Translations under genes and position numbers: made by a program
The notes under the pieces: model-generated
The model's database searches: none
What the model saw: only the letters and a program-made list of their open reading frames with translations
Told to the model about the DNA's origin: nothing
Origin: Desmonostoc muscorum LEGE 12446
GTDB taxonomy: Bacteria; Cyanobacteriota; Cyanobacteriia; Cyanobacteriales; Nostocaceae
Length of the DNA stretch: 64,000 nt
Direction of reading: 5' to 3'
Assembly: GCF_015207005.2 (NCBI RefSeq)
Contig: NZ_JADEXS020000001.1
Coordinates: 6,285,001 to 6,349,000, forward strand
Shown: in pieces, positions 30,001 to 60,452 of the stretch
Numbering within the stretch: the stretch's first letter is position 1
How the letters are laid out: the number at the start of each line of letters is the position of its first letter

Positions 30001-30026
30001 AAAAAAAACTTCTAACTAATAAAAAT

Positions 30027-43201: not shown

Positions 43202-44581
43202 CTAAACTAAACCAGCAGCTAATGGTTGCGACTGTCCTCGATCTTGACAGCGACTATGCATAACCATCTTCACGCCACTTGCAGGTGAACAAATCAAACC
43301 TGCAAATTTAGGACGTTCTGGGTGGTGAGTGACTAACTCTAATTGATAGTGTGAAAGAATAGTTGCTAATATAAGTTTCATTTCAAATAAAGCAAAATTC
43401 GCACCAATACAGACACGAGAACCGCCGCCAAATGGCAAAAAATCGTAGGGAGAAAATTGTTTTTCTAAAAAGCGTTCTGGCTGAAATTCTTTTGGATTTG
43501 GATATAAATCTTCACGCTGATGGGTTGAATAAATATTACCAATAAGTATTGTACCGGGATGCAGTTCGTAGCCCATGATTTCAACGGTCGATTCTACCAA
43601 CCTGGGAAATGTAAACAATTGAGTTGGGTAAATTCGCAAAATTTCATTACATACAGCACTTAAGTACGGTAGTGCAACAATGCTCATAGGGTCTGGATTT
43701 TGACCAAGACTATCAAGTTCTTCGAGTAATTTTTCTCGAACATTTTTTAAACGATGAATCCAATACAAAGACCAACTAATAGCAGTTCCGGAGGCGTCAC
43801 CAGATGCAAATATAGGTGATAATAAAAGGTCGCGTACTTCTTCATCGCTTAATGTTTCGCCTGTTTCATCACGAGCAAATATTAGATCGCCAAGTATATC
43901 AGTGTGTGAAAAATCTGCTTGCTGGCGACGTTCTTTGACCTCAGTAGATAGTAGTTGGAAAAGTTCTCGTCGTAGGTTAAGGACATACCCTTGTGGACTC
44001 CATCGACCTAAATCTTTTTCTAAGAAAATCTTGCTAAGAATTTTAACTATCAGAGATTGTCTATCGAGTTTAAGTAAACATGCAAATAAATGTTTAATTT
44101 TCTCATAGCGCTCTCCTTGATGCAAACCAATTACCCGTTCTATACCCACTTGAAAAGTAATATCTTCAATGACTGGGTATGCAACAAAAGGTTTTCCAAC
44201 CACTTGTTTATTCATCATCTTTTCTGTGAGTTCACAGATACCTCGCCCACACGCTTGCATCCGCGCTCCATGAAAAGCTTGCATTAAGAGTTTACGCCGA
44301 TTTTTGTGAATTAAACCATCAAGTTGCAGAAGTCCTTGATTTCCTGTGATAAAGGCAAACTCTTCATTCAATGCACCCCTAGCTATAATTTCTTTGGTAT
44401 TTGTAAAAATCTCTTTTATGCCTAAAGGATTGCTGATGTAAACAATTGGTGTAGAGCCAGACATTATAGTAACGATATCCCCATAACGTTGGGAAATACC
44501 ATCCAAATAGCCAAAAGGATTAAACTCGAATTGTAGACCTAACAGCCAGAATGGTGTTTTTATTACTGGGGGTAGTTTCAT
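43202..44581 (-). CDS. Cytochrome P450 (CYP110-like), first of a pair
   Basis: A 459-residue P450 starting at ATG 44581, whose first base overlaps the last base of the NRPS stop codon (TAATG), so the two are translationally coupled. The heme loop is FLPFGGGSRVCIGANFALFEM (Cys at about residue 391), ExxR is EILRIYPT, and the PERF motif is FQPERFLE. The I helix is ASGDASGTAISW, in which the catalytic acid-Thr pair is changed to S-G-T. The N-terminal LPPVIKTPFWLLGLQFEFNP is the cyanobacterial CYP110 pattern with no membrane anchor. It is probably a hydroxylase acting on the assembly-line product. Confidence 0.93.
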   Translation of the reverse strand: MKLPPVIKTPFWLLGLQFEFNPFGYLDGISQRYGDIVTIMSGSTPIVYISNPLGIKEIFTNTKEIIARGALNEEFAFITGNQGLLQLDGLIHKNRRKLLMQAFHGARMQACGRGICELTEKMMNKQVVGKPFVAYPVIEDITFQVGIERVIGLHQGERYEKIKHLFACLLKLDRQSLIVKILSKIFLEKDLGRWSPQGYVLNLRRELFQLLSTEVKERRQQADFSHTDILGDLIFARDETGETLSDEEVRDLLLSPIFASGDASGTAISWSLYWIHRLKNVREKLLEELDSLGQNPDPMSIVALPYLSAVCNEILRIYPTQLFTFPRLVESTVEIMGYELHPGTILIGNIYSTHQREDLYPNPKEFQPERFLEKQFSPYDFLPFGGGSRVCIGANFALFEMKLILATILSHYQLELVTHHPERPKFAGLICSPASGVKMVMHSRCQDRGQSQPLAAGLV

Positions 44582-47500
44582 TAGTTTGTTTTACTCCCAT
44601 TATTTAGATTGCATACAGCATTATCGATACAATTTCTCAAATTTTTAGCTAATTCCTGAATATGAGGTTCAATGAAAATTGAAAAATGATCTCCAGGAAC
44701 TTCCATAACTTTAATAAGTTGACGAGAACATTTACCCCAACCCAGTAAGGGATCATCAGTATGAAATTCCGGACTTTCAAAATCATGAATAATCTCTTCC
44801 TTGGCTCGAAAAAGAGTTATAGAATCAGGGTAAACGAGGGGTACATAATCTCGCATCGCTTGGACATGAGCCTTGAAAAGATTGTAATAACTGAGAAAAT
44901 CTTTAATCTCTGTATCGCTAAAGATGAAGTTTACTTTTTGATTAATCAAATCAAGTTGGTCGTTGAGTGATAAATCTCGAAGTTCCTCAAAAGAAAGTGA
45001 AAAATCTATATTATTATCGGTTTTTATTGATTCAGCCATGCGGAGTAAAAACTTTGCATCGTCATCTTTTGTAGATTCAATGCGTGTTTCTGAAAGTATG
45101 GCATCGATTACAACTAACAAATCTACTGTTTCACCCTGTCTTTGTAATTGCTGTGCAATTTCAAAAGCAAGTACACCGCCGTAACAATGACCACCTAAAA
45201 GATAAGGGCCATTTGGCTGTATTTTACGAATTTGTTGCAGGTAATAGTTTGCTGTTTTTTCTACTGATAGAATTTCAGGTTCTTCTTCATCAGGGTTATG
45301 TTCTAAAGCATAAAATGGATAATCTTCACCAAGTCTTCTGGATAAATTAATATAGTGATTAATACCTCCGCCAGCGCCATGTATACAAAAGAAAGGTATC
45401 TTGGAGCCAGAAGAGTTAATTGCTACCACAGGAGAATTAGAACTCTCGCGGAATGGCTGACTGACAATTGCAGCTAGTTTCTCAATTGTCGGATTTTCAA
45501 AAAGAGTTGATAGAGCGAGATTATGGCCAAATCTGTCTTGAATTTGAGCCATTAAGCGTACAGCTAAAAATGAGTGACCACCCAAGTTAAAAAAGTTATC
45601 TGTTACCCCGATAGGGCTAGTATTTAGAAGATTTTCCCAAAGTTTTACTAATGATAATTCTGTAAAATTCCGAGGACTTATTAAGGTTTTAGTAGTATTT
45701 ACTCGAATAACTTCATCTGTGGGAAGAGAACGCTTGTCTACTTTGCCATTAGGTGTAAGTGGCAGTGCATCCAATACTACAAATGCAGTTGGTAGCATAT
45801 AATTAGGCAGTTTCTGTTGCAAATATAGCAATAGTTCTGTAGCTATATGCTCTTTTTCTGTGACAATATATGCAATCAAACGTTGATTTTCTTCAGCATC
45901 ATTAACCACAATTACAATAGAATCTTGTACATCTGGGTGTTGTGTAATAAAAGTACCAATTTCACTCAATTCAACTCGAAAACCTCTGATTTTTACTTGT
46001 TCATCATGACGACCCAAATATTCCAGATTTCCATCATTGAGATAACGCACTAAATCGCCTGTTTTATAAAGCTTTGTTTCTGAGATAAAGGGGTTATCGA
46101 TAAATGTTTCCTGAGTTAATTCTGGACGATTTAAATATCCTCTTGCTAAGCTATCACCACCAATATAAAGTTCGCCCATAACTCCTACAGGTATTGGTTG
46201 TAAATTGCGATTCAAGACATAGATTTGAGTATTGTCGATAGGACGACCTATAGGAACAGTGTTTGCTTGGTCTTGTAATAAACTGGTGTCGTAGTAAGTA
46301 GCGTTGGCAGAAACTTCCGATGAACCGTAAAGGTTGATTAGTTTTGCAAATGGCATTAATTCTCGGAAAGTTTTAGCTAAGTTAACGGATAGTGCTTCGC
46401 CGCTAGTTATCCACAGTTTTAGTTGTGATAATTTCTGAGTCAGATGATGATAATTATTTATGAGTAAACGTAGTAATGAAGGTACAAGTATAATACGAGT
46501 AACTTTATGATATGCTAAAGCTTCTATAAATAGTTGTGGGTCTAGTAGAGTTGCATTGTTAATAATTACTGTAGGAATTCCTTGAAGTAAAGGAGCAAAA
46601 ATTTCCCAAACGGAATCTACAAAACTAATCGCTGTTTTCTGGCAACAAACTTCTTCTGGGGTGAAAGGATAAGTTTTCCATAGCCAGTGTAAGCCATTTA
46701 CTGTACCGCGATGGGTACCAAGAACGCCTTTAGGTGTTCCAGTTGAGCCAGAAGTGTAGATGATATAAGCGAGATTATCAGGTTTTGAACTGTTAACGGG
46801 GTTTTCTGGACTTTGTTGAATAATTTTGTCTTTGTGAATATCCAAGCAAACAATTTCAGGCAAAGATAATGATAGTTTTTCTAATATTTCTTGATGACTA
46901 ATTAATATCGATGCTTGAGAATCCGAGAGCATAAAATTTAAACGTTCAACTGGATAACTGGGATCGAGGGGAATGTATGCGCCGCCAGCTTTGAGAATAG
47001 CTAAAATTCCCACCACCATGTCTATGGAACGTTCGAGACATATAGCAACGAGCGTTTCTTTTGTTACACCCTGTTTTTGTAAATAATTTGCAAGCTGATT
47101 AGCTTTATGGTTAAGTTGACGATAAGTGAGTTGCTCAGACTGATGAATTAACGCTATAGAATCAGGCGTTAGTTCAACTTGTTGTTCAAATAGTTGTTCG
47201 AGAGAGAAATTTTTATACTCTCCACTAGTTTGATTAAACTTAAATAATAATTCTTCTTGTTTTGCAACAGTTAGTAGTGATAACTCACAAATACGCTGCT
47301 CTGGATTAGCAACGATATTTTCTAATAAAGTTTGGAAGTTGTTGATAAATTGAATAATGGTTGTTGCATCAAAAATATCTGTATTGTACTCCAAACATCC
47401 TGTTAACCCTTCTTGGGATTCAAACATTGATAGGAAAATATCTAGTTGAGATGTACCGCTATCAAAGTCTAAAGTACGCAAGGTTAATCCAGATACTTCC

Positions 47501-48690
47501 TGGACAGAGGTTGGAGTATTTTGCAGGACGAACATGACTTCATAAAGGGGATTTCGGCTTAAGTCGCGTTCGGGTTGCAATTCTTCTACAACCATTTCAA
47601 AAGGCAAGTCTTGATGTGCATAAGCATCGAGAGTCACTTGACGGACTCGATGTAGAAGTTCACAGAAATTAGGATTACCATTGAGGTTATTACGCAATAC
47701 TAAAGTATTAACAAATAAACCCAACATTCCTTCTAATTCGGCTCGGTTACGGTTGGCAATGGGAGAACCAATCAAGATATCTTCTTGGTCTGTGTAGCGA
47801 TATAATAATAGTTTAAAAGCTGCCAGCAAGCTCATAAATAAAGTGGCGTCTTGTCGCTGGCTTAATTGTTTGAGTGCATTAGTTAAGGCTGCGGAAAGTG
47901 TAAAATATTGCTTGGCACCTGCAAAAGTTGTGACGGTGGGTCGCGGACGGTCTGTGGGTAATTCTAATACAGGAAGCTCGCCGCTTAGTTGTTGCTTCCA
48001 ATATTTTAACTTGGTTGCGAGGAATTCTCCTTGAATGCGATCGCGTTGCCAAATTGCAAAATCTGCATACTGAATTGGAAGTTCGGGTAAGGGGGAAGGC
48101 TGATTTGTCGAGAAAGCTGCATACAGCGTTGACAACTCCCGCAAAAATACACCACAAGACCATCCATCGGTGATAATGTGATGCATGGTCACAAGCAAAA
48201 CGTGTTCTTCTTCACTTAAGCGCAGTAAAATTGCTCTGACTAAAAGTCCTTTAGCTAAATTAAAGGGTTTTGTTGCTTCCTTCGCTACAAGTTCTTTAAC
48301 CTCAGATTCCCAATTATTATCAGATAAATGCTCAAGATTAATGATGGGTAAATCCCAAGTTAAATCGTGGGTAATTTCCTGTACTGGCTCTCCATTTGCA
48401 AGTCTAAATGTTGTGCGCCAAATTTCGTGACGCTTGAGGATTTCATTTAGACTTTGCTGAAGCGCTGTAATATTTAGCTTCCCTTTGATATGAAAAGCAA
48501 TGGGAATATTGTAGAAGGAACTTCCGCGGTAGAGTTGGTCAATAAACCATAGTCTTTGTTGTGAAAAAGACAAGGGAATCTTGTTAGAGATTTGACGTTT
48601 GGGAATAGTATCAGTCTGAAATTTACCTCCTTTCCATTTTTCTAAGAGGGCTTTTTTGGCTGGCGATAAATTAGTATGATGTTTATCCAT
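44581..48690 (-). CDS. Non-ribosomal peptide synthetase, C-A-PCP-TE (beta-amino acid code)
   Basis: A 1369-residue termination module. The N-terminal linker LSPAKKALLEKWKGGKF precedes the C domain (about 36-470), with HHIITDG at about 170. The A domain (about 490-1010) has IIYTSGSTGTPKGV at 648 and NGKVDKRSL. Specificity residues read against GrsA give VDWIISLANK, with Val at 235 and Asp at 236, as in beta-alanine-activating domains (VDWVISLADK from memory). PCP: LGGHSFLAVRL, about 1037. TE (about 1110-1369): nucleophile motif GGHCYGG with Cys in place of Ser, Asp in VVIDAIL and His in PGDHFSIF. It adds one amino acid to the polyketide and releases the product. There is no epimerase or methylation domain. 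Confidence 0.95.
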   Translation of the reverse strand: MDKHHTNLSPAKKALLEKWKGGKFQTDTIPKRQISNKIPLSFSQQRLWFIDQLYRGSSFYNIPIAFHIKGKLNITALQQSLNEILKRHEIWRTTFRLANGEPVQEITHDLTWDLPIINLEHLSDNNWESEVKELVAKEATKPFNLAKGLLVRAILLRLSEEEHVLLVTMHHIITDGWSCGVFLRELSTLYAAFSTNQPSPLPELPIQYADFAIWQRDRIQGEFLATKLKYWKQQLSGELPVLELPTDRPRPTVTTFAGAKQYFTLSAALTNALKQLSQRQDATLFMSLLAAFKLLLYRYTDQEDILIGSPIANRNRAELEGMLGLFVNTLVLRNNLNGNPNFCELLHRVRQVTLDAYAHQDLPFEMVVEELQPERDLSRNPLYEVMFVLQNTPTSVQEVSGLTLRTLDFDSGTSQLDIFLSMFESQEGLTGCLEYNTDIFDATTIIQFINNFQTLLENIVANPEQRICELSLLTVAKQEELLFKFNQTSGEYKNFSLEQLFEQQVELTPDSIALIHQSEQLTYRQLNHKANQLANYLQKQGVTKETLVAICLERSIDMVVGILAILKAGGAYIPLDPSYPVERLNFMLSDSQASILISHQEILEKLSLSLPEIVCLDIHKDKIIQQSPENPVNSSKPDNLAYIIYTSGSTGTPKGVLGTHRGTVNGLHWLWKTYPFTPEEVCCQKTAISFVDSVWEIFAPLLQGIPTVIINNATLLDPQLFIEALAYHKVTRIILVPSLLRLLINNYHHLTQKLSQLKLWITSGEALSVNLAKTFRELMPFAKLINLYGSSEVSANATYYDTSLLQDQANTVPIGRPIDNTQIYVLNRNLQPIPVGVMGELYIGGDSLARGYLNRPELTQETFIDNPFISETKLYKTGDLVRYLNDGNLEYLGRHDEQVKIRGFRVELSEIGTFITQHPDVQDSIVIVVNDAEENQRLIAYIVTEKEHIATELLLYLQQKLPNYMLPTAFVVLDALPLTPNGKVDKRSLPTDEVIRVNTTKTLISPRNFTELSLVKLWENLLNTSPIGVTDNFFNLGGHSFLAVRLMAQIQDRFGHNLALSTLFENPTIEKLAAIVSQPFRESSNSPVVAINSSGSKIPFFCIHGAGGGINHYINLSRRLGEDYPFYALEHNPDEEEPEILSVEKTANYYLQQIRKIQPNGPYLLGGHCYGGVLAFEIAQQLQRQGETVDLLVVIDAILSETRIESTKDDDAKFLLRMAESIKTDNNIDFSLSFEELRDLSLNDQLDLINQKVNFIFSDTEIKDFLSYYNLFKAHVQAMRDYVPLVYPDSITLFRAKEEIIHDFESPEFHTDDPLLGWGKCSRQLIKVMEVPGDHFSIFIEPHIQELAKNLRNCIDNAVCNLNNGSKTN

Positions 48691-48789
48691 TGCTAATATG
48701 TGATGAAAATGTTTTTGTGGCTCGTTTTCTGTATGAGGTCAGAGATATTTAATTTCACGTAGAGAGGAAAAATTTTATTCTCCCACTCC

Positions 48790-49563
48790 CTACTCCTCAA
48801 TCCCTGTATTAAGGAAGGCTTTTTGACAAACAAAGCAAGCTATGTCTTCGCTCTCTCCAAAGTCTCTGGTATTGTAATAGTTGAATTCTGTGAACCCAGC
48901 ATCTTTTAAGGCGAACTCAACTTCTTCTAGAAAGTGATCTTTTCTTAACCAAATGGTGTCTGAACGCTGCCAATTTTTCTCTATTAATTCAAATCCTGTG
49001 ACTTTGATTTCCCACACCCTTTCTTCAGGTTTGTAATAGAATAATTCTATTAATGAGCATTCATCATTGATATTGATAATATTAAAGTTGTTTTTCTGAG
49101 CAGCTTCATGTAACCAATCTGTTATTGGTATATTGAACACAAAGACGCCACCATCTTTAAGTGCAGTATATACGTTTTTAAATACCGTTTTCAAATCTTC
49201 GTTGCTTTGAATAAAATGAAGAACATCGTTTGCTAAAGCTGCATCAAAGATCGGTGGTAAATCCAATTGACGTATATCACTAAGAATAAATTCGCTTTCA
49301 GGCGCGTTTTTTCTAGCGTAGTTTAGCAGCGCTTCTGAAGCATCGATTCCAGTAACTTTATATTCTCTAATGTTGAGCTGTTGGGCTAAATATCCAGAAC
49401 CGCAACCAAGTTCAAGAATATGGCTTCCCGCAGGAAGTTGTGATAATAATATTTGGTCTAAAGCAGGTATTATACCTTTTAGCAATTCTTCAGGTGTGTT
49501 CTTGAATTCGTTCTGTAACCGAGCGATGGTTTCATAGTTGGGAAGAGTGTTTAGTAGAGACAT
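48790..49563 (-). CDS. SAM-dependent methyltransferase
   Basis: A 257-residue class I methyltransferase. Motif I is ILELGCGSGYLAQQL (about residues 45-59), with motif II around VTGIDASEALLNYARK, the acidic FILSDIRQLDLPP, and motif III DAALANDVLHFIQS (about 107-120). The substrate cannot be seen; O-, N- or C-methylation are all possible. It is a free-standing enzyme between the last PKS and the NRPS, and co-directional with both, so it most likely methylates the polyketide-peptide during or after assembly. ATG 49563 is clean. Confidence 0.9.
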   Translation of the reverse strand: MSLLNTLPNYETIARLQNEFKNTPEELLKGIIPALDQILLSQLPAGSHILELGCGSGYLAQQLNIREYKVTGIDASEALLNYARKNAPESEFILSDIRQLDLPPIFDAALANDVLHFIQSNEDLKTVFKNVYTALKDGGVFVFNIPITDWLHEAAQKNNFNIININDECSLIELFYYKPEERVWEIKVTGFELIEKNWQRSDTIWLRKDHFLEEVEFALKDAGFTEFNYYNTRDFGESEDIACFVCQKAFLNTGIEE

Positions 49564-49656
49564 AGATTATTTTTCCTGTTGTCAATGAAGGTTTTGAATA
49601 GAATAACGAACCGCAGAGGCACAGAGGACACAGAGAGAAAGAGTATGCTTGAAACT

Positions 49657-52600
49657 TTATTTGTTAGCTAAAAGAGCTTCTACTTCTTCTTCGGATAATT
49701 CTTCTATTTTTTCTAACAAAAGTTGCTCTATCATTTCTGCCTGTTTGACTGGTATCATGGCTTGTGATAAAAGGTCACGCAGTGGTAAATCTATAGGAAA
49801 TTTTGCGCGCAATCGAGAAACCAATTGAGTTGCAATGAGAGAGTCTCCTCCTAATTCATAAAAGTTGTCGCAAATACCAACTTCTGCAATCCCAAGTATC
49901 TCTTGCCATATTTGCGTAATTTGTTTTTCCAACTCATTTGTCGGAGCAAGATATGAATTATTCAGTTGAGGTCTGGAATAACGCGGGGATGAATCTAATT
50001 GATTGGAAGATTTTGGATTTGCTAAATAATCAAGGTGAAATGCATAATTCTGCCTAGCCTTGATGTCTACTGTAGAAACAACAATTTGGGTTCCTTGTTC
50101 TAGAGAAAATATTCTTTTAAATACTTCTATAGCTTCTGTTGGAGTAATGCCTAATTCTACTCCAGGCAATTGTTTGAGGTTTTTTTGTTTTTGATCAAAA
50201 TTTAGTTCTAATTTATCCCAGTTTATAGTGTACCACGGCGAATAATTATTTTGGTTATGTTTTTTAATTAAGGTATCTATGAAATGATTAGCTGCGGAAT
50301 ATAAACCTAAACCAAATCCTCCTAAAATAGAAGATAAAGAAGAGAAAACGATACAAAAATCTAATTTTATATTTTGTAATACTTGTTCTAATACAGTAAT
50401 CTGATGATATTGGTACTTAAGTAGCTTTTCTAGTTCTATCCTATTAATTTCTGGAACTGAACCAAATATTTGTTCACGCTTGATTCCAGTTGAAATAATA
50501 ACCCCGTTAATTTGTTTGATATTCTCAGATGTAAATATTTGATGCATGTGTTGATAATTAGTTCTGTCTGCACGCATTACCAAAACTTTTGCGCCTAATT
50601 TCTTTAATGCTAGCAATTGTTGGATTTTATAACTTATTTTATCTTCTTGAGTGTGAGTTTCAACCCACTGCAACAAATCATCATTTTCTGGAAAATCTAA
50701 ATCCTCAATGAATACGAGTTTTGCTTGCAGATTTTTAGCTAAATATTCTGCAAGCACAAATTCAATACTTTCTAACCCACCAGTAAATAGGTAAACACCC
50801 TCTTTTCTCAATGGTGTTTTTTCTTCAACAACTGGCGTTAAACGAATTGGCTCAAAAGTTTGTACCCAACGGTATAAACCACGATAAGCGACAACTAAAT
50901 CTGAGGATACAGCACTGAATTCATTTAAAAGTTGGTTAATAATGTTATTGTTATAATCTTTTTGTTCTTTCTCTGCATCTTCTCTAATTACTGAGTTAGT
51001 TAAAGCAATATCAATACTTCGACAAGTTATATTAGGATACTCTTGAGGAATTACCTGACATAAACCTAATACCGTTGCTTCCTCTGGATCTAGAATTTCA
51101 TTACCATTGACTTCTTGGATATGATTAGATACAACCCAAAGTTGTAACCTTTGGTCTGTTTTTACTTTACTAAGACTTTGTGATAATAAAAGCAAATTTT
51201 GAAATTCTAAATAATTCCCTGAGTGATTATTGAAACTTATAAAATAAGCTATATTTTGGGGAAATTTATCTAACTGAATTAATTCTGTAAACAGAAGATC
51301 ATAGTCTTTCTGTATAGATGGATTAATTGTATAAATGCCTTCATTTATTTTGTTAAAATTTTCTCCATACTTGACAGTAATTACATTCTTAACTTGATTT
51401 ATTAATGCATTAATTGTTTTTTGAGCCACTCCGTAATCATCTACGAAAAATAACCATTCTTTTTGCCTAGATTCTGTTTGGTCGGAGGATGAATGAGCTA
51501 GCAAAGAGCGTCTCCATGAAGGAATATAAAACCAGTCGGTAATATCTTCTTTCTTATCTAATGTTGATAATTTGCTATTTAAAGAAACCGCTGAATATTT
51601 AGGGTCAATCCAGTATCTTTGTCGCTCAAAGGGATAGGGAGGTAAAGGTAAACGATGACGTTGCTCATGGGTATAAAATCCTGACCAATCTATATTTACA
51701 CCAAAAAGCCACAACTGACCTAATGTTTGTAATAAAAAGCTCGTATCGGATTTTTGCTCTTGCACATGAGGTAAAGAAGTCAGGACATTTTGTTTAGTAT
51801 TGATATCTAAATGTTGTTTTGTTAATGTACTTAAAGTTCGTCCTGGTCCCACTTCCAAGAAAACACCTTCAAGTTGTCTTAAAAGTTGGGATATCCCATC
51901 GGAGAATTTCACAGTTTGTCGTAAATGTTGGCTCCAATAGCTAGGATTTGTGGCTTGTGCATCTATAATCCAAGTACCAGTTACATTGGAAATAAAGCGT
52001 ATGCGTGGTGGATTCAGTTTAATTTTTTTGAACGATCGCACAAATTCCTCTAAGATTGACGACATCATTTGAGAATGGAAAGCATGAGATGTATGCAACA
52101 AACGATATTCAATTCCTTGAGAGGATAATTCATTTTTGAGCGTGGCGATCGCTTCCTTTGTTCCAGAAACTACGCATGAAGTTCGGCTGTTAACTGCTGC
52201 GATTTCTACAGAGTTTGGAATTAGCGATCGCACTTCTTTTTCTGGAAGCGGAATCGCTAGCATACTCCCTGGCGGTAACTGCTGCATCAGTTGTCCCCTT
52301 TTTGCCACAATGAATAGGGCATCTTCAAGGGAAAATACACCTGCGATCGCAGCTGCAACATATTCCCCAATGCTGTGACCAATCATCGCGGTAGGTAGCA
52401 CACCCCATGACATCAATAACTTAGCCAAGGCGTACTCAATTACAAATAATGCTGGCTGGGTGAAGGCTGTTTGTTGTAATTTTTGGTTAGCTGCATCAAT
52501 TTGTTCTGATTTGGGAAACAATAAATCACGGATATCAAGACCGAGTTGGGGTTGCAAAATCTCCGCGCAAGTATCTACATGTCTGCGAAATGTCGGTTCG

Positions 52601-54243
52601 ACTTCGTAGAGTTCTCGACCCATATTTGCATATTGCGACCCTTGTCCAGAAAACATGAAAATGACAGGCTGTTCTCTATGCTCTTGATATACAGTAAAAG
52701 TTCGTTCTTGCTGCTGTGTTTCTAAAACATTGACAGCATCTTGAACATTTTGGCACACCAACATTCGGCGATAGTTGAAAGCCCTACGACCTACTTGTAA
52801 AGTATGAGCAACATTAGCTAAATTTATCTCTGGATTTTGTTTAAAGTACGCTAATAAATTCCCAGTTGTACTTTCTAAGGCTGTACTAGTTTTGGCTGAT
52901 AATAAGATTAATTGCCAAGGTCTAGATTTATCAACATGTCTAACTTCCGGTGCTTCTTCCAGAATTACATGGGCATTAGTTCCACCAAAACCCAAGGAAC
53001 TAATTCCTGCTCTCCGGGGAGTATTGTTAGTTTTCCAATCAGTCAGTTTAGTATTAACATAAAAGGGACTATTTACAAAATCAATCTCAGGATTGGGGAC
53101 TTCAAAATTGATGCTAGGAGGGATTTTTTTATATTTTAATGCTTGTACAGTTTTAATTAGACTTGCTATGCCAGCAGCTATATCTAAATGTCCAATATTT
53201 GGCTTGACTGAACCGATAGCACAGAAGCCATTTCTTGATGTGAAAGCACGAAAAGCCTTAGTCAATGCGGCAATTTCCACTGGATCTCCAGCAGCGGTTC
53301 CAGTTCCATGAGTTTCTATATAAGAAATATCATCAGCATCTATTCCAGCATTTGCCAAAGCTTCTACAATAACTTCAGCCTGACCATTTACACTAGGTGC
53401 GGTATAACTAACTTTTAAAGAGCCATCATTGTTGATTGCTGAACCTTTAACAACTGCATGAATGTAATCTCTATCTGCTATGGCATCTTTTAATCTTTTT
53501 AATACAATTATTCCAAGTCCACTGCCGAAAAGAGTACCCTGTGCTTTAGCATCGAAGGCTCTACAATGACCATCAGGAGATAAAATTCCATCTTGTTCAT
53601 AGTAATAACCTGATTTTTGTGGAACTATAATTGTAACCCCACCAGCTAATGCAATATCACACTCTTCGTCAAGTAGACTTTTGCAAGCTAAGTGTAAGGC
53701 AACTAATGAAGTAGAGCAGTAAGTTTGGACTCCTACACTTGGCCCTTTTAAATTTAATTTATATGAGACATTTGTGGTCAAAAAATCTTTGTTAAAAGTA
53801 TAGTTGTTGGAAATAACCCTGGAATTAACGTTATTATATATATTGTTAAAAAAGTAAGTGTTTGTGCTGACACCGCCATAAACTCCAATCAAACCATTGT
53901 ATGTTTCTGGGTCATATCCAGCGTTTTCAAGAGCTTCCCAAGCACATTGTATGAATAGGCGATGTTGGGGGTCAATTAGTTCGGCTTCTTTGGGACTGTA
54001 ACCAAAGAATCTAGCATCAAAATGTTCAATATCTGGTAGTATAGGCGCTGCCTTAACATAATTTTGGTCGTTTAAAACTTCTTCTTCGAGATTTAAATCT
54101 ACTAAGTCATGATTGGAGAAAAATGAAATAGATTCAACTTTATTTTGGATATTCTGCCAAAACTCATCGATATTCTTTGCACCAGGGAAACGACCAGACA
54201 TTCCCACTATTGCTACATCTAGATTTACTGTTGATTCTTCCAT
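49657..54243 (-). CDS. Type I polyketide synthase module, KS-AT-KR(broken)-ACP
   Basis: A 1528-residue module. KS (about 8-430): Cys in QTYCSTSLVALH, His in ETHGTGTAAGDP and PNIGHLD, all intact. AT (about 529-830): FSGQGSQYANMG, GHSIGEYVAA (622) and HAFHS (721), intact and of the malonyl type. The KR region (about 1150-1360): the NADPH loop TGGLGGIG reads TGGLESIE, and ADVT reads ADRT, though YSAAN is kept. Ketoreduction is therefore probably lost. ACP: LGGDSLIATQL (about 1466). The C-terminal LLLEKIEELSEEEVEALL is a docking tail for the NRPS. There is no DH or ER. It is the last PKS before the NRPS. Confidence 0.95.
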   Translation of the reverse strand: MEESTVNLDVAIVGMSGRFPGAKNIDEFWQNIQNKVESISFFSNHDLVDLNLEEEVLNDQNYVKAAPILPDIEHFDARFFGYSPKEAELIDPQHRLFIQCAWEALENAGYDPETYNGLIGVYGGVSTNTYFFNNIYNNVNSRVISNNYTFNKDFLTTNVSYKLNLKGPSVGVQTYCSTSLVALHLACKSLLDEECDIALAGGVTIIVPQKSGYYYEQDGILSPDGHCRAFDAKAQGTLFGSGLGIIVLKRLKDAIADRDYIHAVVKGSAINNDGSLKVSYTAPSVNGQAEVIVEALANAGIDADDISYIETHGTGTAAGDPVEIAALTKAFRAFTSRNGFCAIGSVKPNIGHLDIAAGIASLIKTVQALKYKKIPPSINFEVPNPEIDFVNSPFYVNTKLTDWKTNNTPRRAGISSLGFGGTNAHVILEEAPEVRHVDKSRPWQLILLSAKTSTALESTTGNLLAYFKQNPEINLANVAHTLQVGRRAFNYRRMLVCQNVQDAVNVLETQQQERTFTVYQEHREQPVIFMFSGQGSQYANMGRELYEVEPTFRRHVDTCAEILQPQLGLDIRDLLFPKSEQIDAANQKLQQTAFTQPALFVIEYALAKLLMSWGVLPTAMIGHSIGEYVAAAIAGVFSLEDALFIVAKRGQLMQQLPPGSMLAIPLPEKEVRSLIPNSVEIAAVNSRTSCVVSGTKEAIATLKNELSSQGIEYRLLHTSHAFHSQMMSSILEEFVRSFKKIKLNPPRIRFISNVTGTWIIDAQATNPSYWSQHLRQTVKFSDGISQLLRQLEGVFLEVGPGRTLSTLTKQHLDINTKQNVLTSLPHVQEQKSDTSFLLQTLGQLWLFGVNIDWSGFYTHEQRHRLPLPPYPFERQRYWIDPKYSAVSLNSKLSTLDKKEDITDWFYIPSWRRSLLAHSSSDQTESRQKEWLFFVDDYGVAQKTINALINQVKNVITVKYGENFNKINEGIYTINPSIQKDYDLLFTELIQLDKFPQNIAYFISFNNHSGNYLEFQNLLLLSQSLSKVKTDQRLQLWVVSNHIQEVNGNEILDPEEATVLGLCQVIPQEYPNITCRSIDIALTNSVIREDAEKEQKDYNNNIINQLLNEFSAVSSDLVVAYRGLYRWVQTFEPIRLTPVVEEKTPLRKEGVYLFTGGLESIEFVLAEYLAKNLQAKLVFIEDLDFPENDDLLQWVETHTQEDKISYKIQQLLALKKLGAKVLVMRADRTNYQHMHQIFTSENIKQINGVIISTGIKREQIFGSVPEINRIELEKLLKYQYHQITVLEQVLQNIKLDFCIVFSSLSSILGGFGLGLYSAANHFIDTLIKKHNQNNYSPWYTINWDKLELNFDQKQKNLKQLPGVELGITPTEAIEVFKRIFSLEQGTQIVVSTVDIKARQNYAFHLDYLANPKSSNQLDSSPRYSRPQLNNSYLAPTNELEKQITQIWQEILGIAEVGICDNFYELGGDSLIATQLVSRLRAKFPIDLPLRDLLSQAMIPVKQAEMIEQLLLEKIEELSEEEVEALLANK

Positions 54244-54276
54244 GACTTTCTTAACCAGATAAATTAACTTTGTATT

Positions 54277-57200
54277 TTAGTGAGTTTGCATTTTTATCTG
54301 TCTTCTTCTTTGTCCTCTATTTAGCCTTTGTTCAAAACTATTTTTATCAGATTCTTCAGGATTAAAAATATTTGCCATAGAGCTTATATTTGGACATTCA
54401 TACAGCTTGGCAACAGAAAGATTTGAATCAAATTGCTTATTTAAGATGGTAATAAGTTGAATACCTATGAGGGAATCACCACCAAGCTCAAAGAAGTTAT
54501 CATAAATTCCTATGCGTTCAATTCCAATAACTTCTTGCCAAATATCAACTAGTTTTTGCTCATTTTTATTTCGCGGCGCAACATAATCATTACTGAGTTC
54601 AGGTCGGGGATATTTTAATTTAGATGAATTGACAGGTTCTAAAAAATCTAATCCTGGTATTTTGTTGTCATAATTATAACGTTTGAGTACATCCAATAAG
54701 TCAGACGTAGATATTACAACTTGGGGGATTGTATTTCCCAAAATTCTGAGAAAAACTTCTACACCTTCATCAGGTAATATACCTTGTTTAAGATTTTCTA
54801 ATCGCAATTCTTGGAGTCGTTGGGGTAATTCTGTGTTTACTGCCATGCCAACTTCTTGCCAAGTATCCCAATTAATGCTTGTAAGAAATCGTCCTTCTTT
54901 TCCCCCATTAGAGTGAGCATAAGCATCCAAAAAAGCATTTGCAGCGCAATAATCTACTTGTCCAAATTCCGCCACAATTGAGCTATTTGATGAGACTAAA
55001 ACAAAGAAATCTAACTCAATGTTTTTAAGAATTGCATCAATAACTATTGTTCCCTTTACCTTGGGAGCCAGAATTCTTTCTGCTTCTTCTGGAGTTTTTC
55101 GTTGAATTGCACCGCCTCCAGGAACTCCAGCGGCGTGGATAACGCCATTGAGTTGACCAAATTGTTGTTTAGCTTGAACGATCGCACTTCGCATCTGTTC
55201 TGTGTTGGTGACATCAGCCGCGATCGCCAAAACTTCAGCACCCAAGTCTTCAAGTTCTTGAAGTTTGCGAATCTTACAGCTAGTTCTATCAGTCTCATCA
55301 TGAGTAGACACCCATTGAGACCATTCATCTTTGTTGGGTAAAGCAGAACGTCCTACTAACAGTAATTTTGCTTGTACAGTTCGAGCTAAATATTCTGCCA
55401 AAACAAGTCCGATACCTCCGAGTCCGCCTGTAATTAAATAGACTCCTCTTTCTCGTAGTCGAGGCTTTTCAATTTTAGTTTTCTCAAAACGCACTGGCTC
55501 AAAACTCTGCACCCAACGATTCAAACCTCGATAAGCAATTAACTTTTCCGATTTATCAACTGTCAGTTCTGCAAGTAAATTTTCTATCAGTTTTTCTTCT
55601 TGCCAACTGCCATTATAAGGAAGGATAACATCAATACTACGGCAATTGATATTTGCATATTCTTGAGAAATAACTTTAACTGGGCCGAGTAAAGTTGCTT
55701 TTTCTGGACAAAGCACTTCAGTTCCTGTAACTGGCTGTAAGTTATTAGAAATAACTATGATTTCAAAATCATTAGTAGTTTCTCGTCTTCCTAAAGCTTG
55801 GGCGATAAATAATAAACTATAAAATCCCTTTATTTGGGCTAGCTCTACTTTTTGCTCAACGACAGGTGTAACATTCCACAAATGAAGTATGTTTTTTGGT
55901 AACTTATTTTTTCTGATTAATTCTTCAAATAAAACATCATAATCATGATGATTTTCTGGATTGATACTATATTCAGACTCGCCTAGTATGGTAAAGGTGT
56001 CACCTAATTTAACTGTAACTACATCTTGGTTTTGTTTTTCTAGTTGCTTGACCAAGTTGATACCGAAGCCGCACTCATCGATAAATACCAAAGTGCAAGA
56101 TTTTTCAGTTCCTAATTCTTGGTTATCGAGTTGCACTGGCGGTAAAGAAGGCTTCCAAAAAGGAATATAAAACCAATCGGCTATATCAGGTTTTTTAACT
56201 AGTGAACTATGATTATTATCTTTTCCTGGCTTTTTCGCATCAATCCAATACCTTTGCCGTTCAAAAGGATAAGTAGGTAAAGGTAAACGATGACGTTGTT
56301 CTTCGCTATAAAATTCTGACCAATCTATACTGACACCAAAAAGCCACAACTGTCCCAATGTCTGCAACAAAAAGCTGACATCTGATTGTTGATTTTGAGA
56401 TAAACAGATCAGTACATGTTGTTTGACATTGATATCTAAATGTTCTTTAGTTAATCTACTTAAATTTTGTTCCCGTCCTACCTCTAGAAAAACACCTTCA
56501 AACTGCTCTAAAATTTGAGATATACTATCAGATAATCTACCATTTTGTTGTAAATTTTGACACCAATAATTAAGATTTGTGGCTTGTGCATCTGTAATCC
56601 AACTACCAGTTAAATTGGAAATAAAGCGAATTCGCGGTGGATTTAGTTTAACTTTTTTTAGCCCTTGTAATTGTTCTTTATTTGCTACAATTGCTAAGGC
56701 ATCTTCTAAGGAAAATACACCTGCGATCGCAGCTGCTACATATTCACCAATACCCTCACCAATCATCGCTTCTGGTAGCACACCCCATGACATCAATAAC
56801 TCAGCTAGGGCGTACTCAATTACAAATAATCCTGCATTGGTGAGGCTAGGTACAGCAATTTTATCTGACTCTGAAAACAGTAAATCGCGGATATCAAGAC
56901 CGAGGTGGGGTTGCAAAATTTCGGCACAATTATCTACATGTTTCCGATATGTTGCTTCAACTTCATATAATTCTCGGCTGATATTCGATACTTTTCCTGA
57001 AAATATGAAGATAACAGGATAACGAATTGGTTTAAAATGATAGTTAAAAACACGTTCTTGTTCGTGATTTTGAAGTAATTTAACTGAGTCATTCAAGTCT
57101 TGACAAACTATCATACGTCGATGGTCAAAAGCTCGACGACCTACTTGTAGGGTGTAAGCTACATCAGCCAGGTTAATATTTGGATGTTGCTGGAGGTAAG

Positions 57201-58626
57201 TAGCTAAATTGGCTGCCGCAGCTTCTAAAGCGGTGCTGGTTTTAGCTGATAATAATATTAACTGCCAAGGACGAGAAGCACTAGATTCCTCAATTAATGG
57301 AGCTTCTTGTAATATTACGTGGGCATTAGTTCCACCAACACCAAAAGAACTTACACCTGCTCTACGAGGTAACCCGTTAGTTTTCCACTCTGATAATTTG
57401 GTGTTGACGTAGAAGGGACTGTTAGCAAAATCTATCTCTGGATTTGGTTTGTCAAAATGTAAACTAGGGGGTATTTGTTGATGTTTTAATGCCAGGACTG
57501 TTTTAATTAAACCTGTGACACCTGCTGCTGTATCCAGATGCCCAATATTGGTTTTTACTGAACCGATAGCGCAGAAACTTTTTTGATTTGTGCTAGCACG
57601 AAAAGCTTGTGTGAGAGCCTTAATTTCAATCGGATCTCCCAAGGGAGTTGCAGTTCCATGAGCTTCAATATAAGAAATAGTATCGGCTTCAACATCAGCT
57701 AAAGCAAGTGCTTCTGAAATTACTTCTCTTTGACCATTCACACTAGGCGCCGTAAAACCAACTTTTAAAGAGCCATCATTATTGATAGCCGAACCTTTAA
57801 TTACAGCATTAATAAAATCACCATCAGCAATAGCATCCTCCAATCTTTTTAACACAACAATTCCCAAACCATCGCCAAACACTGTTCCTTTAGCGTTAGC
57901 ATCAAAAGTCCGGCAATGTCCGTCAGGGGAATGAAGAACTCCCTCTTGATACAGATAACCAGATTTTTGGGGTAACTTGGCTATGGAAACACCACCAGCC
58001 AAAGCTATATCACTTTCTCCATTGAGTAAACTTTGACAGGCTAAATGTACAGCTATTAATGATGTAGAGCAGTTATTCTGAACATTTATACTTGGTCCGG
58101 TAAGATTTAATTTGTAAGAAGTTTGTGTGCTTAAATTATCTTTTTCATTACCAATAAAAATATTTAAAGCATCTACCGAATCGATTAATTCTTTATTTGA
58201 AGCTAAATTTGTAAATAAATAATTACTGTTAGTGACACCAGCATAAACCCCTATTTTACCTTTGTAAGATTCAGAATCATAGCCCGCAGATTCTAAAGCT
58301 TCCCAAGCAGACTCTAAAAACAGACGATGCTGCGGATCTGTGATTTCAGCTTCTCTGGGAGTATATCCAAAAAATGCAGCATCAAATAACTCAATCCCTT
58401 CTATGAAGCTACCTACTTTCACATAATTTGGGTCATTAAGTAAAGTTAGTTCTACACCCGTAGTTTGCAGTTCTTCATCTGTAAAATGCGAAATTGATTC
58501 TACTCCATCTCGCAAATTTTCCCAAAACTTATCAACGTTGTTTGCCCCTGGAAAGCGGCCAGTTATGCCAATAATAGCTATTGCATCGTTATCATCAAAA
58601 TTGTCAAATTCTTGATAATTCTTCAT
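54277..58626 (-). CDS. Type I polyketide synthase module, KS-(degenerate AT)-KR-ACP
   Basis: A 1449-residue module starting at ATG 58626 (a TTG lies one codon earlier). KS (about 12-435): QNNCSTSLIAVH, EAHGTATPLGDP, TNIGHLD, all intact. AT region: the entry motif reads FSGKVSNISREL instead of FSGQGSQ..., the nucleophile motif reads GEGIGEYVAA instead of GHSIGEYVAA (Ser lost), and about 85 residues including the HAFHS block are missing compared with the next module. KR: TGGLGGIGLVLAEYLA, GRSALP, VDYCAANAFLDA, intact. ACP: LGGDSLIGIQL (about 1384). The Arg-rich tail NRGQRRRQIK could dock to the next protein. Malonyl must be loaded by another AT. Confidence 0.94.
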   Translation of the reverse strand: MKNYQEFDNFDDNDAIAIIGITGRFPGANNVDKFWENLRDGVESISHFTDEELQTTGVELTLLNDPNYVKVGSFIEGIELFDAAFFGYTPREAEITDPQHRLFLESAWEALESAGYDSESYKGKIGVYAGVTNSNYLFTNLASNKELIDSVDALNIFIGNEKDNLSTQTSYKLNLTGPSINVQNNCSTSLIAVHLACQSLLNGESDIALAGGVSIAKLPQKSGYLYQEGVLHSPDGHCRTFDANAKGTVFGDGLGIVVLKRLEDAIADGDFINAVIKGSAINNDGSLKVGFTAPSVNGQREVISEALALADVEADTISYIEAHGTATPLGDPIEIKALTQAFRASTNQKSFCAIGSVKTNIGHLDTAAGVTGLIKTVLALKHQQIPPSLHFDKPNPEIDFANSPFYVNTKLSEWKTNGLPRRAGVSSFGVGGTNAHVILQEAPLIEESSASRPWQLILLSAKTSTALEAAAANLATYLQQHPNINLADVAYTLQVGRRAFDHRRMIVCQDLNDSVKLLQNHEQERVFNYHFKPIRYPVIFIFSGKVSNISRELYEVEATYRKHVDNCAEILQPHLGLDIRDLLFSESDKIAVPSLTNAGLFVIEYALAELLMSWGVLPEAMIGEGIGEYVAAAIAGVFSLEDALAIVANKEQLQGLKKVKLNPPRIRFISNLTGSWITDAQATNLNYWCQNLQQNGRLSDSISQILEQFEGVFLEVGREQNLSRLTKEHLDINVKQHVLICLSQNQQSDVSFLLQTLGQLWLFGVSIDWSEFYSEEQRHRLPLPTYPFERQRYWIDAKKPGKDNNHSSLVKKPDIADWFYIPFWKPSLPPVQLDNQELGTEKSCTLVFIDECGFGINLVKQLEKQNQDVVTVKLGDTFTILGESEYSINPENHHDYDVLFEELIRKNKLPKNILHLWNVTPVVEQKVELAQIKGFYSLLFIAQALGRRETTNDFEIIVISNNLQPVTGTEVLCPEKATLLGPVKVISQEYANINCRSIDVILPYNGSWQEEKLIENLLAELTVDKSEKLIAYRGLNRWVQSFEPVRFEKTKIEKPRLRERGVYLITGGLGGIGLVLAEYLARTVQAKLLLVGRSALPNKDEWSQWVSTHDETDRTSCKIRKLQELEDLGAEVLAIAADVTNTEQMRSAIVQAKQQFGQLNGVIHAAGVPGGGAIQRKTPEEAERILAPKVKGTIVIDAILKNIELDFFVLVSSNSSIVAEFGQVDYCAANAFLDAYAHSNGGKEGRFLTSINWDTWQEVGMAVNTELPQRLQELRLENLKQGILPDEGVEVFLRILGNTIPQVVISTSDLLDVLKRYNYDNKIPGLDFLEPVNSSKLKYPRPELSNDYVAPRNKNEQKLVDIWQEVIGIERIGIYDNFFELGGDSLIGIQLITILNKQFDSNLSVAKLYECPNISSMANIFNPEESDKNSFEQRLNRGQRRRQIKMQTH

Positions 58627-58629
58627 CAA

Positions 58630-58761
58630 AAAAATACCTAACTACACTTATTTTTATCAGCAACTACACCATTTCTCATTTATTTAGACCATGCTCTTGT
58701 CTTCCTCTCTGCGCCTCTGCGTCTCTGCGTGAGATAAAAAATTTTGACTCTGAGTAGCTTC
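58630..58761. other. Spacer with dispersed ctctgcgcctctgcg repeat
   Basis: The 130-base gap between the decarboxylase and the PKS holds a copy of the tctctgcgcctctgcg repeat (58705-58735), ending in gtgagataaaa. It is the only larger break within the cluster core and could contain a secondary promoter; none can be identified. Confidence 0.55.
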
Positions 58762-60417
58762 TCAACAATCTGATATCTCTAAATCTAAAGCAATGTGAAT
58801 TTGGTCATTTAAAACTGCATCAATATCATCTTTAGTAGTCAGTGGATTAGCAATTACCGCACGCAGCGCAGTTACAGAAATTTCTTTTTCTAAACAGGTA
58901 ATTGTTTTTGTTGTCCGCGAGATAAAAGTACGACCAGCTTGGCGTTGACTTTTTTGCAGGCGTTCATTAAATATATTAATTTGTTGATTATCAGTTTCTG
59001 TTAATTGGTTTTTAACTGCAAGTTCTCTTAAAGACTCCGGAATATAACGGTAAAGAAGCAGATTTATATCCGGTTCCGATAGTAACTCAAATTCCGGCAT
59101 ATTATTGACACAATCAGCCATATATTGTGTTTTCTCAATTCCTGCATCAATCAAAAATTCATAACCTTTCAACCCTATCAAATGTAGTCCAGCATGTAAA
59201 AATAATGCCATACCGGGACGAGAACCTTCTAAAGCGCGTTTTCCTAAATCAAATGAACCCTTACGCATGGTGTAGCTAGCATTTTTTTCAATAGATGAAG
59301 CTAGGTGTGGTTCGCGCATAAATACCATACCAATACCCATAGGTAAATACAGCTGTTTATGTCCATCAATTGTGACTGAATCAGCCCGTTCAATACCAAT
59401 AAGTTTTTGTCGATGTTGTTCGGAAAATATTAGTGGTCCACCCCAAGCTGCATCTACATGAAAATGAACATTTGCAGCTTGGGCAATATCTGCAATATCT
59501 AAAAGTGAGTCTATATTACCAGAATCTGTAGTACCGGCAACGCCAGCGATCGCAATAATATGCAAATTTTTGCTCTGACAATCTGCAACAGCTTGACGTA
59601 GGGCTGATAAATCCACTTGGTTATTACCATTAGTAGGAATTTTAATCAAACCATGCGTACCTATGCCTAATAAATCTGCTGCTTTTTCAAAAGAATAATG
59701 CATCAATTCAGAGCCAATTACCACCGCTCCTTGATAACCATAGTAATCTAAAGCTGCTGCTAAACCTGCCTTTTCTACACCTGGAAAACTCTTTTTTGCA
59801 CCCAAAGATTTATTACGCGCACACCATAATGCAATAATGTTTGCTGCGGTACCTCCGGAAACCAATATGCCTAAAGTGCTTTGGCTATTTTGGACATGCT
59901 CGCTATAAAATTCGTCAGAAAAGTTATAAATTAATCTATGGATCATTGCCAAAGCCTGACGCTCGTATGGACTAAAAGCTTTGGCTGTTTCTATTTTGAC
60001 AACATTCTGGTTCATTGCTGTCATCAGTTTTGCAAGAGGTCGTACAAAACAGGGTAATGCAGAGGTCATGTGACCTATAAACCGGGGTGAAGATGTATGT
60101 ATTGAATGATTAATAACATTATTTGCTAAATATTCCAGATAACTATCATAATCAGCAGGATTAGTGGGAACTTGACTATCAGCAAATGTTTCTATTAATG
60201 AATTAAATTCAATATCTGAATTAGTGTTAATGGTATTTAAAAAACTATCAACCAAGGCGTCAGTCTCAACAGCCATATTAGCTTCTATAGAGACTAATTT
60301 ATTAGATGGTGCAAATAATTGCATCACTTCATTTGCAACTGCATACTGTGGTGTTAGCTCATTCTTCAAAAAGAAATTTTGCTGAGTTTTTTCTTGTCTT
60401 TGCTGACTTAATGCCAT
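58762..60417 (-). CDS. PLP-dependent decarboxylase, PanP-like (probable aspartate 1-decarboxylase)
   Basis: A 551-residue PLP enzyme of the group II decarboxylase family, started at ATG 60417, which has GGAG upstream; GTG 60429 is the alternative. The family features are HTSSPRFIGHMTSALPCFV, VSGGTAANIIALW, VAGTTDSGNIDSLLDIADIA, HVDAAWGGP (Asp and Ala of the cofactor pocket), and the PLP Lys in TIDGHKQLYLP. The overall layout and the end ISRTTK...TALRAVIANPLTTKDDIDAVL match PanP, the enzyme that makes beta-alanine from aspartate in Vibrio and relatives. Glutamate or tyrosine decarboxylase cannot be excluded. It sits between two PKS genes, 36 bases after one. Confidence 0.9.
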   Translation of the reverse strand: MALSQQRQEKTQQNFFLKNELTPQYAVANEVMQLFAPSNKLVSIEANMAVETDALVDSFLNTINTNSDIEFNSLIETFADSQVPTNPADYDSYLEYLANNVINHSIHTSSPRFIGHMTSALPCFVRPLAKLMTAMNQNVVKIETAKAFSPYERQALAMIHRLIYNFSDEFYSEHVQNSQSTLGILVSGGTAANIIALWCARNKSLGAKKSFPGVEKAGLAAALDYYGYQGAVVIGSELMHYSFEKAADLLGIGTHGLIKIPTNGNNQVDLSALRQAVADCQSKNLHIIAIAGVAGTTDSGNIDSLLDIADIAQAANVHFHVDAAWGGPLIFSEQHRQKLIGIERADSVTIDGHKQLYLPMGIGMVFMREPHLASSIEKNASYTMRKGSFDLGKRALEGSRPGMALFLHAGLHLIGLKGYEFLIDAGIEKTQYMADCVNNMPEFELLSEPDINLLLYRYIPESLRELAVKNQLTETDNQQINIFNERLQKSQRQAGRTFISRTTKTITCLEKEISVTALRAVIANPLTTKDDIDAVLNDQIHIALDLEISDC

Positions 60418-60452
60418 TTTATACTCCACAAAGAATTTGTTATTTTAAATTT

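What the first reader, a model, noticed from the sequence alone, without database searches (positions are those of the whole stretch)
44581..60417. Biosynthetic cluster seems to carry its own beta-alanine supply, matched to its single A domain
Seen: a PLP decarboxylase with PanP-like blocks (SPRFIGHMTSALPCF, ANPLTTKDD) lies between two PKS genes. The only adenylation domain gives VDWIISLANK at the ten GrsA positions. Established: PanP-type enzymes make beta-alanine from aspartate, and the remembered code for a beta-alanine domain (bleomycin) is VDWVISLADK, 8 of 10 identical, with the unusual Val235/Asp236. Inference: the decarboxylase feeds the NRPS, so the product contains beta-alanine or a substituted beta-amino acid, and the precursor enzyme travels with the cluster.
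Basis: partly seen in the sequence, partly recalled or inferred. Interest (0 to 1): 0.9.

Follow-up and report, generated by a model that had tools for sequence, protein, structure and literature searches.

The report
Assembly line with built-in beta-alanine supply
A cyanobacterial gene cluster that builds a peptide-polyketide carries the enzyme that should make one of its rarer building blocks, beta-alanine; the same pairing recurs in related clusters, and in other bacteria the supplier enzyme is inserted inside the domain that would use its product.

Summary
A PLP decarboxylase (58762-60429, -) lies between two PKS genes and passes the curated PanP (aspartate 1-decarboxylase) cut-off, 614.9 of 606.1 bits. 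The terminal NRPS (44581-48690) has the code VDWIISLANK. It is not the cluster's only A domain: the cluster runs about 40 kb past the window edge and holds four more. The inference is well supported. Of 388 genomes of the class (own included), 11 have a PanP hit of 360 bits or more (7 over the cut-off), all in NRPS/PKS surroundings; all 11 hold the beta-alanine-type A5 motif, against 1 of the other 377. Of 80 named loci, 27 of 27 cyanobacterial PanPs lie in NRPS/PKS clusters, 0 of 53 others do. The genome also has PanD. Beyond the finding: in 69 of 74 long proteins a PanP-type domain sits inside an A domain, between A5 and A6; all 69 have V/I-D codes, against 3 of 66 other A domains there. Held papers searched gave no description of this. 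Activity is untested.

The parts
58762..60429 (-). PanP-type PLP-dependent aspartate 1-decarboxylase (proposed beta-alanine supplier), 555 aa from GTG, or 551 aa from the ATG at 60417
   Evidence: TIGR03799 614.9 bits, cut-off 606.1; PF00282; quoted blocks found; PLP-site Lys, Asp and His conserved
44581..48690 (-). terminal NRPS module C-A-T-TE; A domain code VDWIISLANK (beta-alanine type)
   Evidence: Pfam domains; code by alignment
46597..46623 (-). A4 motif FVDSVWEIF with the V235/D236 signature of the beta-alanine-type A domain
   Evidence: only match of the A4 pattern in the own genome, G000:C1:6331597-6331623
60453..64000 (-). PKS gene KS-AT-KR-ACP upstream of the decarboxylase; runs past the window edge (whole gene L003:5454-10106)
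   Evidence: coordinate difference to the decarboxylase 24
54277..58629 (-). PKS gene KS-AT*-KR-ACP just downstream of the decarboxylase; AT has GEGIG in place of GHSxG and matches only the first part of the AT model
49657..54243 (-). PKS gene KS-AT-KR-ACP
48790..49563 (-). methyltransferase
43202..44581 (-). cytochrome P450
41634..43043 (-). cytochrome P450
40650..41630 (-). short-chain dehydrogenase
39584..40600 (-). sucrase/ferredoxin-like protein, perhaps an electron donor for the P450s (inferred)
38187..39560 (-). MATE exporter, likely near the downstream end of the cluster (inferred)

Best explanation
The decarboxylase is a PanP-family, PLP-dependent aspartate 1-decarboxylase dedicated to this PKS/NRPS cluster. 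[quoted passage not shown] The A domain of the terminal C-A-T-TE module activates the beta-alanine, the C domain condenses it onto the chain delivered by the preceding KS-AT-KR modules, and the thioesterase releases a product with beta-alanine as its last-added unit. Shown by sequence: family, PLP-site residues, A-domain code, gene order, co-occurrence in relatives, and fusion of a PanP-type domain with the same A-domain type elsewhere. Inferred: the substrate, the direction of supply, the product.
For: PanP cut-off passed. PLP-site Lys, Asp and His present in 35 of 35 cluster-borne enzymes, 53 of 53 stand-alone PanPs and 71 of 71 embedded domains aligned (Lys and Asp also in 18 of 18 outgroup enzymes); the Lys of the NQNxxK block is present in all three groups and is Ser in 18 of 18 outgroup enzymes. 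Code VDWIISLANK. 11 of 11 genomes with a PanP hit of 360 bits or more hold the A5 motif, 1 of the other 377 does. 27 of 27 cyanobacterial loci lie in NRPS/PKS clusters, 0 of 53 others. A V/I-D A domain lies on the same contig and strand in 23 of the 27: 13 inside the locus, 10 more at about 12-19 kb. PanP-type domain inserted in a V/I-D A domain in 69 of 74 long proteins. PanD elsewhere in the genome, so PanP is probably not needed for CoA. Precedent: the fungal aspartate decarboxylases DtxS4 and PleC are assigned to beta-alanine supply (PMC12177691, passages).
Against: No activity measured, no product known. The genome's PanD could supply beta-alanine by itself; in pleosporacin, expression without pleC still gave product (PMC12177691, passages). 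G348 has a beta-alanine-type A domain with no PanP hit at 1e-60 and no decarboxylase match in the 58 kb fetched around it. The PanP score is only 9 bits above the cut-off, and only 7 of the 11 genomes are over it; the 360-bit line was drawn by me at the gap. Both motif patterns were designed from PanP-linked A domains, so PanP-free beta-alanine A domains may be undercounted. The Fisher p values ignore shared ancestry, and some loci are near-duplicates (L015 and L069 come from contigs of equal length, 36262).
Confidence: 0.8

Rival explanations
1. Decarboxylation on the carrier: the A domain activates aspartate through its side-chain carboxyl and the PLP enzyme then decarboxylates carrier-bound aspartate, as recalled for VinN/VinO (vicenistatin) and FlvN/FlvO (fluvirucin). 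The product would be the same.
For: The insertion of PanP-type domains inside A domains puts the enzyme next to the adenylate and the carrier. The precedent is recalled, from no call.
Against: No Arg, Lys or His among the first nine code positions of any V/I-D code listed, so nothing obvious would pair with the alpha-carboxylate of aspartate; the cluster-borne enzymes group with stand-alone PanP, and PanP-like enzymes serve pantothenate synthesis (PMC10102598, passages), hence presumably act on free aspartate.
Confidence: 0.15
2. The gene is a housekeeping PanP for coenzyme A that happens to lie in the cluster.
For: Other PLP aspartate decarboxylases replace PanD in some bacteria (PMC10102598, passages); 7 of 11 PanP-bearing genomes gave no PanD hit.
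Against: This genome has PanD, and so have the 8 genomes of its family seen in a draw of 145 (the list of misses, cut after 20, shows none of that family); 90 of the 145 lack a PanD hit while PanP of 360 bits or more is rare (11 of 388), so PanP is not the general substitute. All 11 and all 27 cases lie in NRPS/PKS clusters.
Confidence: 0.04
3. The enzyme acts on another amino acid: 3-methylaspartate (giving 3-amino-2-methylpropionate, as CrpG does) or 2,4-diaminobutyrate made by the cluster's own aminotransferase.
For: A diaminobutyrate transaminase lies upstream in the cluster; methyl-beta-alanine occurs in Nostoc cryptophycins (PMC6835634, passages).
Against: No glutamate mutase E subunit match in the genome (the control rang in only 1 of 14 known genomes and under the cut-off, so a weak negative). 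Diaminobutyrate decarboxylase model 156 bits of 900. The transaminase was detected, among the related loci searched, only in 12 with a DIWEM-type A domain, while PanP and the V/I-D domain also occur in loci without either.
Confidence: 0.08

Closest known systems
PanP, PLP-dependent aspartate 1-decarboxylase (TIGR03799; Vibrio fischeri PanP)
   Same: family cut-off passed; hallmark blocks and PLP-site residues shared with stand-alone PanPs of Vibrio and others
   Different: sits in a PKS/NRPS cluster; the host has PanD as well. The V. fischeri protein itself was not compared
CrpG of the cryptophycin cluster (Nostoc)
   Same: cluster-borne decarboxylase that makes a beta-amino acid for an NRPS module in a cyanobacterium
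   Different: CrpG resembles pyruvoyl PanD and prefers 3-methylaspartate (PMC7459860, section 10); this enzyme is PLP-type PF00282
DtxS4 and PleC, fungal aspartate decarboxylases of the destruxin and pleosporacin clusters
   Same: aspartate decarboxylase assigned to beta-alanine supply for an NRPS (PMC12177691, passages)
   Different: fungal, separate genes; sequences not compared here
Beta-alanine A domains such as the bleomycin one (code VDWVISLADK, recalled)
   Same: V235/D236 and 8 of 10 code positions; A domains of related clusters read exactly VDWVISLADK
   Different: the window domain has I at position 4 and N at position 9; a search of held papers for the code string found none
Interrupted adenylation domains (Labby et al. 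2015, seen only in reference lists)
   Same: relatives of this system have a catalytic domain inserted inside an A domain
   Different: known inserts are recalled as methyltransferase, ketoreductase or oxidase, between A2-A3 or A8-A9; here a PLP decarboxylase between A5 and A6. The window's own A domain is not interrupted

Membership tests
PanP aspartate 1-decarboxylase (TIGR03799) | score above the curated equivalog cut-off | tested here: met
   614.9 of 606.1 bits
PanP aspartate 1-decarboxylase (TIGR03799) | PLP-binding Lys and partner Asp/His, PanP blocks | tested here: met
PanP aspartate 1-decarboxylase (TIGR03799) | groups with stand-alone PanP in a tree | tested here: met
   35 cluster-borne + 53 stand-alone rows, support 1.0
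PanP aspartate 1-decarboxylase (TIGR03799) | decarboxylates aspartate | not testable with these tools
   needs an enzyme assay
Beta-alanine-activating A domain | Asp235 replaced, Asp236 present (V/I-D code; the rule itself is recalled) | tested here: met
   VDWIISLANK
Beta-alanine-activating A domain | activates beta-alanine | not testable with these tools
   needs ATP-PPi exchange
CrpG / PanD-type pyruvoyl decarboxylase | PF02261 domain | tested here: not met
   the protein is PF00282; the genome's single PF02261 match lies about 2.5 Mb away
L-2,4-diaminobutyrate decarboxylase (NF052646) | score above cut-off | tested here: not met
   156 of 900 bits
Glutamate or tyrosine decarboxylase | score above cut-off | tested here: not met
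   TIGR01788 36.8 of 380.4; TIGR03811 88.5 of 905.3; TIGR03812 121.5 of 299.4
VinO/FlvO-type carrier-dependent decarboxylase | acts on carrier-bound aspartate | not tested
   no reference sequence at hand; needs an assay
Interrupted A domain (decarboxylase insert) | catalytic domain inside the A domain of the same protein | tested here: not met
   not met for the window NRPS (continuous A domain); met in 69 of 74 long relatives

The most novel reading that the evidence does not exclude
Beta-alanine-type A domains and PanP-type aspartate decarboxylases form a recurrent supply-and-use pair in two layouts: a separate gene inside the cluster (this window), and a bifunctional, self-supplying A domain with the decarboxylase inserted between A5 and A6, in cyanobacteria, Bacteroidota, proteobacteria and Desulfobacterota (phyla recalled from the names given). 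The embedded form would make its substrate beside the pocket that uses it, possibly by channelling; a decarboxylase would be a new catalytic type, and A5-A6 a new place, for interrupted A domains.
Probability: 0.7. Interest if true: 0.85.

Novelty: new variant of a known kind. Interest (0 to 1): 0.72.

Why it matters
The gene pair would let a genome reader predict a beta-alanine unit, and its place in the chain, in a large family of uncharacterised cyanobacterial PKS/NRPS clusters. It adds bacterial PanP, beside pyruvoyl CrpG and the fungal enzymes, to the families doing the same supply job. The embedded form makes substrate channelling inside an adenylation domain testable on a single protein.

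Tried and rejected
Rejected: housekeeping PanP; diaminobutyrate, glutamate or tyrosine decarboxylase; CrpG-type enzyme (see rivals and membership test). A structure model of the decarboxylase (26 aligned sequences) had mean pLDDT 60.1 and was used for no claim; no fold search was run. Comparison with sequences of solved structures listed 52 PF00282-type and related enzymes under mixed names, best 8zpi and 4rit; none is labelled PanP, a few 'L-tyrosine/L-aspartate decarboxylase'. Paper searches that led nowhere: no paper held all terms; 12 papers; passages of four of them read. One search asked for either of two terms and showed only 12 of 51,990 papers, so it is a weak search. The product was not identified.

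Exceptions and rows dropped: G348, A domain without PanP (the A4 reading FVDSVWELF of L173 was made by eye); L060 and L068, decarboxylase near a contig end, no A4 motif in the genome; L053 and L071, A4 motif apparently on other contigs; of the 74 long proteins, P0150, P0193 and P0194 have no A half before the decarboxylase, and P0155 and P0159 no second half; L109 and L110, AMP-ligases of 21-23% identity near a non-cyanobacterial PanP. The decarboxylase tree used 35 cyanobacterial rows (the fused or split L016 and L017 were not given, and the partial L071 fell under the length limit), 53 others, 71 of the 74 long proteins and 18 of 19 outgroup loci. The embedded group's own support is 0.343, and deep nodes of the A-domain tree have support 0.0, so the order of insertion and loss is open. 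The A-domain tree left out pieces under 420 residues and identical copies.
Full report
OBSERVATION. The window (G000:C1:6285001-6349000, a 9.6 Mb genome) carries on its minus strand a decarboxylase gene at 58762-60429 between PKS genes. Both quoted blocks are present. The protein passes the curated PanP model (614.9 of 606.1 bits) and none of the other decarboxylase models listed. The terminal NRPS 44581-48690 is C-A-T-TE and its code by alignment is VDWIISLANK. The closest named relatives of the decarboxylase are in Desmonostoc and Nostoc (97%).

WHAT THE WINDOW EDGE HID. The PKS gene at the edge continues, and the cluster goes on upstream for about 40 kb in L003-L005: KS-AT-KR-ACP, C(part)-A-T, a class-III aminotransferase (diaminobutyrate transaminase), a cupin-type protein, two condensation-domain ORFs, transposase ORFs, KS-AT-KR-ACP, C-A-T, C-A-T-C, a putative methyltransferase, KS-AT-KR-T-C, a TauD-type dioxygenase, a cupin-type protein, a FAAL-ACP-C-A(MT)-T protein and a further cupin-type protein. 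Four more amino-acid A domains lie there, all with D at the first code position. So the window's A domain is the only beta-alanine-type one in the genome by the A4 and A5 motifs (one match each), but not the only A domain of the cluster.

CO-OCCURRENCE. TIGR03799 in 388 genomes of the class, the own genome included, gave 64 genomes at 1e-60 with a clear gap: 11 genomes have a best hit of 367 bits or more (7 of them over the curated cut-off), the other 53 have 236.3 bits or less. All 11 lie in NRPS/PKS surroundings, one as part of an NRPS. The A4 motif was found in 9 of 388 genomes, all among these 11; G229 and G329 miss it but have VDAVFSLAD- and VDWVISLADK/VDAVISLADK domains. The A5 motif was found in 12 genomes: all 11 plus G348. 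G348 has the A domain and no decarboxylase match in the 58 kb fetched around it. Fisher p is 1.8e-20 for the A5 table, which ignores ancestry. Both patterns came from PanP-linked domains, so PanP-free beta-alanine domains with other residues could be missed; one search lists relatives of the pocket region at 50-64% identity, some named as Clostridium or Longimicrobium, whose codes and surroundings were not examined.

NAMED RECORDS. All 27 have NRPS or PKS domains beside the decarboxylase; none of the 53 has a C or KS match at 1e-12 in the DNA held. A V/I-D A domain is on the same contig and strand in 23 of 27: 13 inside the locus and 10 at about 12-19 kb. Two more have the motif elsewhere in fragmented assemblies and two have none found. 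Eight loci show two or more such domains (L040, L042, L056, L059, L064, L065, L072, L075), typically one ending ADK before the decarboxylase and one ending ANK in the module followed by the thioesterase.

FUSION. In G229 the decarboxylase is part of a 3640-aa open frame. A search with that domain, restricted by length to long proteins, found 74 at 1e-20. In 69 both halves of an A domain flank the decarboxylase; the first half ends at model position 306-339 of 499 (median 312, 71 proteins) and the second starts at 266-316 (median 310, 69 proteins), that is after A5 and before A6; two lack the second half and three are of another build. All 69 embedded A domains have V/I-D codes; of 66 complete other A domains in the same proteins 3 do. 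Names given by sources include Richelia, Crocosphaera, Cyanothece, Myxosarcina, Chitinophaga, Flavobacterium, Aquimarina, Kordia, Pedobacter, Chryseobacterium, Fulvivirga, Motilimonas, Jeongeupia and Candidatus Electrothrix; many rows have no name. The three embedded proteins tested scored 467-516 bits with the PanP model, below its cut-off: PanP-like, not formal members.

TREES. Decarboxylases: 35 cluster-borne cyanobacterial rows form one group (0.979), within the group of stand-alone PanP (53 + 35, support 1.0); the 71 embedded domains lie outside it, their own grouping being weak (0.343). A domains: 56 uninterrupted V/I-D domains and 69 embedded ones, with one other, form one clade (1.0) among 247. 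The two layouts therefore look like two recruitments of the same enzyme type to the same A-domain type, though the weak support leaves other histories possible.

DEDICATED SUPPLY. The genome has PanD, as have 4 of the 11 PanP genomes, this one counted, and 55 of 145 genomes of the class. PanP is thus probably surplus for CoA here. In the 7 PanP genomes without a PanD hit it might serve both roles.

MECHANISM. Aspartate to beta-alanine by the PLP enzyme, activation by the terminal A domain, condensation, release by TE (best explanation). Against a carrier-bound route: no basic residue in the first nine positions of the V/I-D codes listed and kinship with stand-alone PanP; for it: the embedded position. 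Both routes put beta-alanine in the product.

LITERATURE. Seen: CrpG as a PanD-like methylaspartate decarboxylase (PMC7459860, section 10); PleC and DtxS4 (PMC12177691, passages); PanP and DVU0867 beside PanD (PMC10102598, passages). Searches for a decarboxylase in an interrupted A domain gave no such report in the open-licence library; one search showed only the top 12 of a loose search, held two papers, none. Searches are passages of the nearest papers and describe no such insert. Subscription papers were not searched, so 'not in print' is not claimed.

VERDICT. For the window itself this is a new variant of a known kind (cluster-borne precursor supply). The embedded form in relatives is the larger novelty.

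Noticed in passing
L003:12943-14199 (-) and the A domain in L003:10128-12893 (-), upstream of the window: A second supply pair: a diaminobutyrate transaminase (TIGR02407 574.3, cut-off 552.2) next to an A domain with code DIWEMVADDK, close to a recalled 2,4-diaminobutyrate code. Of 15 other loci with a DIWEM code, 12 hold the transaminase and 3 (L043, L047, L066) are cut within about 1 kb upstream of the A domain; no searched locus without the code held it.
   Followed up: partly
window 54277-58629: The AT of the PKS after the decarboxylase has GEGIG in place of GHSIG; the change recurs in L049-L052 (GEGIG) and L070 (GDGIG), while the 17 other relatives scanned show GHSIG in the AT after their decarboxylase. 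A non-loading or trans-loaded module is possible.
   Followed up: partly
L003:18065-19314 (-): Two ORFs matching the ISAZ013-type transposase family lie inside the cluster, near condensation-domain ORFs at 15133-17735, one of which matches only part of the model.
   Followed up: no
L040, L042, L056, L059, L064, L065, L072, L075: Loci with two or more beta-alanine-type A domains..ADK before the decarboxylase and ..ANK in the terminal module: position 331 may separate two substrates or only two lineages.
   Followed up: no
G348:C3:1921790 (L173): Beta-alanine-type A domain in a genome without a strong PanP hit or a nearby decarboxylase.
   Followed up: partly
class survey: 90 of 145 cyanobacterial genomes gave no PanD match and strong PanP is rare: their beta-alanine source for CoA is unclear.
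   Followed up: no
window 28931-31454: Two Ser/Thr kinase genes in a row, the second with a GUN4-like domain, outside the cluster.
   Followed up: no
L074 (Myxococcales) and L110 (Planctomycetota): Nearest non-cyanobacterial relatives of the cluster-borne enzymes in the tree (0.971), without C or KS domains in the DNA held.
   Followed up: no
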